From an uncultured Flavobacteriaceae bacterium (lineage in GTDB: Bacteria > Bacteroidota > Bacteroidia > Flavobacteriales > Flavobacteriaceae), in contig CAJQLB010000004.1 in the NCBI GenBank assembly GCA_905479065.1, positions 62,001 to 126,000 of the forward strand: a stretch of DNA of 64,000 bases, in the 5' to 3' direction. The notes under the pieces are model-generated. The model saw only the letters and a program-made list of their open reading frames with translations, was not told the DNA's origin and did no database searches. The translations under genes were made by a program, and so were the position numbers. Each line of letters begins with the position of its first letter. The first letter of the stretch is position 1. Shown here piece after piece: positions 15,856 to 44,138 of the stretch.

Positions 15856-15859
15856 TTTA

Positions 15860-15980
15860 GTTATCTATCTAAATAAATGAGTAAAATTCATTTCCTTTAG
15901 TAGAATTTAGCACCTTCTTTAAAATAATAAAGGGTTGCTAAGGTTTCAAAGGGTCTAATCCCTCCACCTTTCTTGATAAC
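15860..15980 (-). ncRNA. SAM-I (S-box) riboswitch upstream of metY-metX
   Basis: Read on the minus strand, the segment has the S-box core in order: P1 5' strand GTTATC (15980-15975), AAGAAAGGTGGAGGG, ACCCTTTGAAACC, TTAGCAACC, AAGGTGCTAAATTCTAC, then a P4 region and the P1 3' strand GATAAC (15865-15860). GCAACC and GGTGCTAA are the most conserved SAM-I blocks. P1 is 6 perfect base pairs. Binding of S-adenosylmethionine should turn off metY-metX, consistent with their role in methionine synthesis. Confidence 0.93.
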
Positions 15981-16036
15981 ATTTCAATAAATTTTGGAAC
16001 TTTAATAGTGCAATATTGAAAAATAAAATAATTAAA

Positions 16037-42497: not shown

Positions 42498-42751
42498 TAT
42501 ATGACGACTTTATTAACTAGTAAATGTAGTAAAGCTAATGCATACTCTTATAGATTTTAAAAATTTTTGCGAATAATCCTATTATTTGAATTTTAAATAC
42601 ACAAACCATAATAAACTAGCTATTAATTTTAATATTCTTTATTACGCCGAAAGAATAACTAATTTTTCAACATTCTGATTGAAGTTATAGACTATTTTTC
42701 TTTTTCATATTGATTTCTATCAAAACCATTTTTTTGTTGGATGATATTATT
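42498..42751. other. Intergenic region between divergent ppc and metK
   Basis: AT-rich. The only notable element is an inverted repeat ATTCTTT (42634-42640) / AAAGAAT (42650-42656) with a 9-nt spacer, which could be an operator or a weak hairpin. Near the ppc start, TAGCTTTA on the minus strand is a poor -7 candidate. No reading frame of note. Confidence 0.35.
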
Positions 42752-42759
42752 TACATTTG
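42752..42759 (+). promoter_or_regulatory. Promoter -7 box of metK
   Basis: TACATTTG, an exact TAnnTTTG match. TTG trinucleotides lie 12-15 nt upstream, which is short for a -33 element. Transcription from here would begin near 42766, giving a leader of about 115 nt that starts right at the structured element. Confidence 0.5.
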
Positions 42760-42771
42760 TTAAGAATTTTC

Positions 42772-42858
42772 GAGGAAAACTTTGATCTGATTGCAACCTC
42801 AATAAAAAATGCTAAAGCAGTAGTTTACAAATTCCTACAGCCTTAGCCATCAAAGTTT
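42772..42858 (+). ncRNA. Structured metK leader RNA, candidate SAM-responsive element
   Basis: Three overlapping structures. (1) AAACTTTGAT (42777-42786) pairs perfectly with ATCAAAGTTT (42849-42858), closing the element. (2) A hairpin inside: GCTAA/TTAGC, GC/GC, GTAG/CTAC (42811-42823 with 42835-42847). (3) A competing small helix GAGG (42772-42775) / CCTC (42797-42800) enclosing GATCTGATTGCAA. The order GAT..ATTGCAA, helix, ATAAA..GCTAAA recalls the SAM-II/SAM-V core. GCAACC followed by TGCTAAA also recalls S-box pieces, but neither class fits fully. Position before SAM synthetase makes SAM sensing plausible. Confidence 0.55.
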
Positions 42859-42881
42859 ATCGATACTAATTTAAAGAGTTC

Positions 42882-44138
42882 ATGGCTTATTTATTTACAT
42901 CAGAAAGTGTCTCAGAAGGGCATCCAGACAAAGTTGCAGATCAAATTAGTGATGCATTAATTGATAATTTTTTGGCATTTGACAAAGATGCTAAAGTCGC
43001 TTGTGAAACTTTAGTAACCACAGGCCAAGTTGTTTTAGCTGGAGAGGTGAAATCTACCACTTATCTGGATGTTCAAAAAATTGCAAGACAGACAATTAAA
43101 GATATTGGCTACACAAAAAGTGAATACATGTTTGACGGTGATTCTTGTGGAGTGTTCTCAGCAATTCACGAACAGTCAGATGACATTAACAGAGGAATCG
43201 ACAGAGAAACTAAAGAAAAACAAGGCGCGGGTGATCAAGGAATGATGTTTGGTTATGCAACACGCGAAACAGAAAACTATATGCCTTTAGCGTTAGATTT
43301 AGCGCATCGTATTCTAACAGAACTTGCCGAATTACGAAGAGAAAATAGAGATATTACGTATTTACGTCCTGATTCAAAAAGTCAAGTCACCATTGAATAC
43401 AATGACAATAATGTCCCCCAAAGAATCGATGCAATCGTAGTCTCAACACAACACGATGACTTTGATGCTGACGCTGTCATGCTTAAAACAATCGAAAATG
43501 ACATCAAAACTATTTTAATACCTCGTGTAATTGCCAAATTACCACAGCATACTCAAACATTATTTACAAATGATATTAAGTATCACATCAATCCAACTGG
43601 AAAATTTGTCATTGGTGGGCCACATGGGGATACTGGACTTACCGGACGAAAAATAATTGTGGACACCTATGGCGGCAAAGGAGCACACGGAGGGGGCGCT
43701 TTTTCTGGGAAAGACCCGAGTAAGGTAGACAGAAGTGCTGCTTATGCTACCAGACATATTGCAAAAAATCTAGTTGCTGCAGGTGTTTGTGATGAAGTAT
43801 TAGTTCAAGTTAGTTATGCAATTGGTGTTGTTGAACCCATGGGGATTTTTATTGACACCTATGGTTCATGCCCTTTTAATATGACAGACGGTGAGATTGC
43901 AAAAAAGGTGTCAGACATTTTTGATATGCGACCTGCTGCAATTGAGAAACGATTAAAGCTTCGAAATCCAATGTATAGTGAGACTGCCGCTTACGGTCAC
44001 ATGGGAAGAGAAAATGAGACCATTTCCAAAACATTTGAACAACCAAATGGCAATACAGTTACCATGGAAGTTGAGCTTTTCACATGGGAGAAATTGGATT
44101 TTGTAGACAAGGTAAAAAAGGCTTTTCGATTGGACTAA
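42882..44138 (+). CDS. metK: S-adenosylmethionine synthetase
   Basis: Makes SAM from methionine and ATP. 418 aa. [41 protein letters not shown] and [19 protein letters not shown] are the hallmark ATP, phosphate and metal-binding blocks. It stands alone, divergent from ppc, behind a structured leader of about 115 nt. Its product is the ligand of the riboswitch at 15860-15980. Confidence 0.97.

What the first reader, a model, noticed from the sequence alone, without database searches (positions are those of the whole stretch)
42752..42881. Unassigned structured leader RNA upstream of SAM synthetase
Seen: a promoter box at 42752-42759 and a leader of about 115 nt. The leader holds a perfect 10-bp long-range helix (42777-42786 with 42849-42858), an internal hairpin, and a competing GAGG/CCTC helix around GATCTGATTGCAA. 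Known: metK leaders in other phyla carry SAM riboswitches (classes I, III, VI). SAM-II and SAM-V share a loop ending ATTGCA followed by a GCTAAA block, which occurs here in the right order. Inference: a SAM-II/V relative with an insertion, or a distinct class. The same genome uses SAM-I for metYX, so two different SAM-sensing folds would coexist.
Basis: partly seen in the sequence, partly recalled or inferred. Interest (0 to 1): 0.75.

Follow-up and report, generated by a model that had tools for sequence, protein, structure and literature searches.

The report
SAM-II riboswitch before SAM synthetase gene

Summary
The sequence features are real, but the RNA is not unassigned. Window 42766-42825 matches Rfam RF01726 (SAM-II long loop) at 54.6 bits against a cut-off of 44; the class is in print since 2010 (PMC2864571, passages) and found in 373 of 397 genomes of this family. 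A SAM-I in the same genome is usual too: 114 of 149 genomes carry both (my cross).

What I add is the switching part. The 10-bp helix is not aptamer: its 3' strand and the adjoining CUACAGCCUUAGC form an anti-aptamer that can pair with the aptamer or, through AGCCAU (42845-42850), with the metK start AUGGCU. With the aptamer blocked, predicted P(unpaired) of A, U, G falls from .88/.84/.44 to .14/.06/.01. Over 79 leaders, one per genus, linkers fit their own aptamer (z -8.3) and own start region (z -6.6) better than those of other genera, the latter mostly in short leaders. Terminator-like sites: 0 of 79. Against: fixed-register covariation of the 10-bp helix is not significant, and the window's linker-start pairing alone is no better than shuffles. 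A translational OFF switch is likely, unproven.

The parts
42752..42759 (+). promoter box TACATTTG (TAnnTTTG type)
   Evidence: Sequence; such a box in 75 of 79 leaders, 4.0 expected. Start of transcription not measured.
42766..42825 (+). SAM-II long-loop aptamer (RF01726): P1 GAGG 42772-42775 / CCTC 42797-42800, core GCTAAAG 42811-42817, candidate pseudoknot CTG 42787-42789 / CAG 42818-42820
   Evidence: 54.6 bits, cut-off 44; CTG/CAG in 169 of 179 leaders
42777..42786 (+). AAACTTTGAT, aptamer-side strand of the 10-bp helix
   Evidence: Sequence; pair probabilities .60-.77 in the free fold
42835..42858 (+). proposed anti-aptamer strand: CTACAGCCTTAGC (pairs with 42811-42823), C, ATCAAAGTTT (pairs with 42777-42786)
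   Evidence: linker-aptamer matched-partner test, window's own aptamer first of 79; fixed-register covariation not significant
42845..42850 (+). AGCCAT, part of the anti-aptamer, complementary to the metK start ATGGCT
   Evidence: Pair probabilities .80-.94 when aptamer bases are blocked, about .02 when free
42882..42887 (+). ATGGCT, start codon and codon 2 of metK, proposed target of 42845-42850
   Evidence: start-codon segment ranks 2 of 79 for this linker
42882..44138 (+). metK, S-adenosylmethionine synthetase, 418 aa
   Evidence: Pfam PF00438, PF02772, PF02773

Best explanation
The leader is a SAM-II long-loop riboswitch (RF01726) that senses SAM and represses SAM synthetase. Shown from sequence: the aptamer, the promoter box, the anti-aptamer strand and its complement at the start codon. 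Inferred: with little SAM, strand 42835-42858 pairs with the aptamer's loop and core in one long hairpin (the 10-bp helix plus the inner hairpin), the AUG stays open and metK is translated. With SAM, the aptamer pseudoknot forms, the strand is released, and its AGCCAU pairs with AUGGCU and closes the start codon. It is a translational OFF switch of three strands, the middle one choosing between sensor and start site.
For: Class: RF01726 at 54.6 bits over the cut-off of 44. Anti-aptamer: linker-aptamer complementarity beats dinucleotide shuffles (mean z -2.66 over 132 leaders, 72% at p<=.05; 57 of 79 genera); matched partners gain 2.22 kcal over mismatched ones (z -8.3, 0 of 5000 permutations), window's own aptamer first of 79; own loops fit own linkers (mean rank .289 of 131.5 expected; window .05). 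Start site: P(unpaired) of A, U, G .88/.84/.44 to .14/.06/.01 on blocking the aptamer; opening cost 2.48 to 6.49 kcal in the window, mean 3.68 to 5.63 over 132 leaders against 4.84 to 5.03 with shuffled linkers; linker versus own start region z -6.6 with two coding and two upstream controls at z -0.1 to -0.4. No terminator-like site in the window leader and 0 of 79 leaders.
Against: No experiment. Fixed-register covariation of the 10-bp helix in 24 aligned leaders is not significant, and the RNAalifold consensus shows no pair changed on both sides. The window's own linker-start duplex is no better than shuffled linkers (45% of 60 shuffles as good), and for the whole start region its own partner ranks only 29 of 79. 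The start signal is strong in short leaders (n=32, z -6.2) but weak in long ones such as this (n=47, z -2.5). In 79 genera the blocked-state opening cost is not significantly above shuffles (p=.15). Congeners L032 and L033 do poorly in the loop-variant test (ranks .86 and .82). The window carries C at a loop position that is A in 175 of 177 leaders. SAM binding was modelled only by forbidding pairs to aptamer bases.
Confidence: 0.6

Rival explanations
1. Same SAM-II aptamer, but SAM controls transcription: the leader ends early (intrinsic or Rho-dependent termination) when SAM is bound.
For: Most SAM-II switches are described as transcriptional (PMC6061858, passages); Rho-dependent control was not tested here.
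Against: No terminator-like site in 42600-43000 and 0 of 79 leaders, 1.2 in shuffles (a crude pattern). Linkers fit their own start region.
Confidence: 0.2
2. Same aptamer, and SAM controls translation, but not through the AGCCAU/AUGGCU helix; the ribosome site is hidden by another fold or by the aptamer's neighbourhood, and the start-codon complement is chance.
For: A six-base complement is short; the window's linker-start duplex is matched by 45% of shuffles; in most genera the signal lies in the 15 bases before the start (z -6.7), not at the AUG (z -1.4).
Against: For the start-codon segment the window's own partner ranks 2 of 79, and the helix dominates the blocked-aptamer fold.
Confidence: 0.16
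3. A decayed or ligand-altered SAM-II relative, or a distinct class, that no longer senses SAM in the usual way.
For: The window has C where 175 of 177 leaders have A, and its score (54.6) is below that of two congeners (63.8, 62.9); the third has 44.9.
Against: It passes RF01726's cut-off over the full model, and the base opposite the changed one in the anti-aptamer is changed too (C-G against the common A-U), which suggests the switch is maintained.
Confidence: 0.04

Closest known systems
SAM-II long-loop riboswitch, Rfam RF01726 (Weinberg et al. 2010, PMC2864571; passages seen)
   Same: Aptamer sequence and P1 over the full model, phylum, and metK as target.
   Different: Loop carries AC where the consensus has GA; one internal consensus pair is non-standard. 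The switching part downstream lies outside the Rfam model.
Alphaproteobacterial SAM-II, Rfam RF00521; S. meliloti metA (PMC9373788; abstract and outline seen)
   Same: Same core (GCUAAA, UUGCA, UUUGA) and, in S. meliloti metA, translation lowered by SAM.
   Different: Only 13.2 bits against a cut-off of 36. There the Shine-Dalgarno sequence is sequestered; here the start codon is proposed.
SAM-V riboswitch (PMC6061858; passages seen)
   Same: Same pseudoknot type as SAM-II; translational OFF switch.
   Different: No SAM-V match to this leader at E up to 10. SAM-V hides a Shine-Dalgarno in its own P2a helix; here a separate downstream strand is proposed.

Membership tests
SAM-II long loop (RF01726) | score at or above the curated cut-off | tested here: met
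   54.6 bits, cut-off 44
SAM-II long loop (RF01726) | P1 stem and conserved core TTTGA, GATTGCAACCTC, AAAAAATGCTAAAGCAG | tested here: met
   alignment; sequence
SAM-II long loop (RF01726) | pseudoknot between the loop and the 3' strand | tested here: met
   Window has CTG/CAG; 169 of 179 leaders have it, changed on both sides and still paired in a few (e.g. L210, L078), unpaired in 4 (partner sought at any offset in 10 bases, so some of the few may be chance)
SAM-II long loop (RF01726) | found in Bacteroidetes | tested here: met
   373 of 397 genomes of the family, 45 of 296 of the phylum
SAM-II long loop (RF01726) | selective SAM binding | not testable with these tools
   needs in-line probing or calorimetry
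Alphaproteobacterial SAM-II (RF00521) | score at or above the curated cut-off | tested here: not met
   13.2 bits, cut-off 36
SAM-I, SAM-III, SAM-V, SAM-VI | Rfam match in the leader | tested here: not met
   none among the 7 matches at E up to 10 in 42700-42900
Translational OFF riboswitch | start site hidden in the ligand-bound fold, open in the free fold | tested here: inconclusive
   predicted, matched-partner support, weak in long leaders, window alone not above shuffles; no experiment

The most novel reading that the evidence does not exclude
In Flavobacteriaceae the SAM-II long-loop class regulates metK translation by a fast-drifting three-strand switch: one linker strand co-evolves both with the aptamer and with the start region, sliding in register between genera, and in this window it is aimed directly at the start codon and codon 2.
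Probability: 0.5. Interest if true: 0.4.

Novelty: new member of a known kind. Interest (0 to 1): 0.25.

Why it matters
It removes a claimed new SAM-sensing class. It gives a concrete, testable model of how the Bacteroidetes SAM-II class may switch genes; in seven searches of an open-access library I found no description of that switching part, and one paper describes most SAM-II switches as transcriptional (PMC6061858, passages). It also shows that two SAM-sensing folds in one genome are common in this family (114 of 149 genomes).

Tried and rejected
A new SAM class: rejected by the RF01726 match. Intrinsic termination: no site in the window, 0 of 79 leaders. Consensus folding of 24 MAFFT-aligned leaders recovered P1 and a hairpin at the core, but none of 15 pairs was changed on both sides, and the exact 10-bp register was not significant (2 pairs changed on both sides, reached by 56 of 500 shuffles; covariation score by 86 of 500). 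I then used matched-versus-mismatched partner tests, which need no fixed register. One search used a wrong offset for the inner helix; one search corrects it. A trimmed version of the start-region test that lost 13 of 79 leaders gave only z -1.5, and one adjacent-segment control far upstream gave z -2.0. A search for DUF6580 in the own genome found nothing, but no control genome rang either. Paper PMC12121620 (passages) and PMC2704228 (passages) held nothing on the switching part of this class.

Rows dropped: one search listed 150 places, the best-scoring ones, of matches in 373 genomes, so the sample leans to consensus-like aptamers. 30 came as loci; of the other 120 I fetched 115 and left out five (G354, G079, G333, G278, G210). 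With the genus search and the window this gave 148 aptamer loci, two duplicates removed. 137 were recognised before metK; of the other 11, L010, L018 and L034, whose loci are cut by contig ends, also precede metK and were missed by the fixed offset. 132 of 137 had the core pattern, 131 of 132 the loop pattern, and 79 remained with one per genus. The 24 rows of the first alignment were picked by hand from 42 found by a linker pattern; rows with long inserts, such as L034, were left out.

Full report
What is there. Scanned against Rfam 15, 42766-42825 matches RF01726, the SAM-II long-loop aptamer, at 54.6 bits against a curated cut-off of 44, over model positions 1-60. The alphaproteobacterial SAM-II model gives 13.2 bits against 36. 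No SAM-I, III, V or VI match is among the 7 listed at E up to 10 in 42700-42900. The class is on record since 2010 as 'SAM-II long loops', Bacteroidetes and marine (PMC2864571, passages).

How common. RF01726 is found in 4 of 4 genomes of the genus, 373 of 397 genomes of the family (358 above cut-off) and 45 of 296 genomes drawn from the phylum (41 above cut-off). Of 148 aptamer loci examined, 137 were recognised directly before metK and three more precede it. SAM-I (RF00162) is in 118 of 149 genomes of the family; four of these 118 lack SAM-II, so 114 of 149 carry both. The window's SAM-I at 15858-15982 (-) precedes a metY-like PLP enzyme and a metX-like hydrolase. Coexistence is usual here.

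Aptamer integrity. P1 is GAGG/CCTC. The pseudoknot strand pair CTG/CAG is found in 169 of 179 leaders; six have other letters that still pair, among them L210 (CAG/CTG) and L078 (TTG/CAA), and four have no partner (the partner could lie anywhere in 10 bases, so some may be chance). The loop base before TTTG is A in 175 of 177 leaders; only the window (C) and its congener L034 (T) differ. Read by eye in the six-sequence alignment, the facing base is G in the window and A in L034, so that T-A there stands against C-G here. What this does to SAM affinity is unknown.

The extra helix. The free-state fold pairs 42777-42786 with 42849-42858 and 42811-42823 with 42835-42847 (probabilities .60-.77, and .90-1.0 for the standard pairs, at 37 C). 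The 5' strands belong to the aptamer, so this fold excludes the SAM-bound one: it is an anti-aptamer. Linker-aptamer complementarity exceeds dinucleotide shuffles (mean z -2.66, 72% of 132 leaders at p<=.05; 57 of 79 genera). Own loops fit own linkers better than other loop variants do (mean rank .289 of 131 leaders.5 expected; 39 rare variants .387; window .05, but congeners L032 and L033 .86 and .82). With one leader per genus, matched aptamer and linker gain 2.22 kcal over mismatched (z -8.3, 0 of 5000 permutations), and the window's own aptamer ranks first of 79 for its linker. Against this, fixed-register covariation of the exact 10-bp helix in 24 aligned leaders is not significant; I infer that registers slide between genera.

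The start site. AGCCAU 42845-42850, inside the anti-aptamer, is complementary to AUGGCU 42882-42887. With aptamer bases 42772-42821 blocked as a stand-in for SAM binding, this helix takes over (.80-.94) and P(unpaired) of A, U, G falls from .88/.84/.44 to .14/.06/.01; at 20 C from .95/.93/.22 to .12/.08/.01. Over 132 leaders the cost of opening the start region rises from 3.68 to 5.63 kcal on blocking, against 4.84 to 5.03 with shuffled linkers (101 of 132 rise more than their shuffles); in 79 genera 59 do, although the blocked-state cost itself is not significantly above shuffles (p=.15). Linkers fit their own start region better than those of other genera (-1.39 kcal, z -6.6), aptamer versus start gives +0.21, and two coding and two upstream segments give z -0.1 to -0.4. 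The signal stays when the last 10 linker bases are cut (z -6.1) but is strong in short leaders (n=32, z -6.2) and weak in long ones (n=47, z -2.5, 42 of 5000). A version that also trimmed the linker's beginning and lost 13 leaders gave z -1.5; one adjacent upstream control gave z -2.0, one adjacent coding control z -0.8. The window is a long leader. Its own start region ranks 29 of 79 as a whole, 55 for the 15 bases before the AUG, and 2 for the segment -3 to +9. Taken alone, its linker-start duplex is matched by 45% of shuffles. So the start-codon lock is supported by the family pattern and by folding, not by the window alone.

Transcription or translation. No terminator-like site lies in 42600-43000 or in any of 79 leaders (1.2 expected from shuffles). 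Rho was not tested. SAM-II switches are described as mostly transcriptional (PMC6061858, passages), with Shine-Dalgarno sequestration by SAM reported for S. meliloti metA (PMC9373788, abstract and outline). I found no account of the switching part of RF01726 in seven searches of the open-access library; supplementary files and most subscription papers are not held there.

Verdict. A member of a known riboswitch class, taken for unassigned, with a plausible and partly tested translational switching mechanism.

Noticed in passing
L009 1501-2624; also L116, L129, L149, and L147: In some small genomes of the family a second SAM-II long-loop aptamer precedes a QueF-like gene (Pfam for L009; the others by likeness), followed in L009 by a membrane protein that looks like DUF6580; in L147 the aptamer directly precedes DUF6580. 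A SAM-controlled transporter is a lead.
   Followed up: partly
L020, L121, L153: A SAM-II long-loop aptamer precedes a metY-like PLP enzyme gene (Pfam for L020 only), the gene that SAM-I precedes in the window. G004, the source of L121, shows no SAM-I, which suggests a swap of riboswitch class.
   Followed up: partly
G005, G009, G027, G038, G107, G117 (places): SAM-I and SAM-II elements lie back to back on opposite strands, about 125 to 310 bases apart, so two SAM-sensing leaders appear to share one divergent promoter region.
   Followed up: no
L034, L037, L041, L047, L058 and others: Many metK aptamers carry an inserted hairpin between CCTC and the A-rich stretch before TGCTAAA.
   Followed up: no
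L004, L005, L013, L022, L115: Short leaders hold a stem such as GTTGCTTT / AAAGCAAC that ends a few bases before the ATG and encloses the anti-aptamer strand (sequences): a clearer start-region lock than the window's.
   Followed up: partly
window 15858-15982: SAM-I riboswitch (RF00162, 79.8 bits, - strand) before the metY-like and metX-like genes; the only SAM-I found in this genome.
   Followed up: yes
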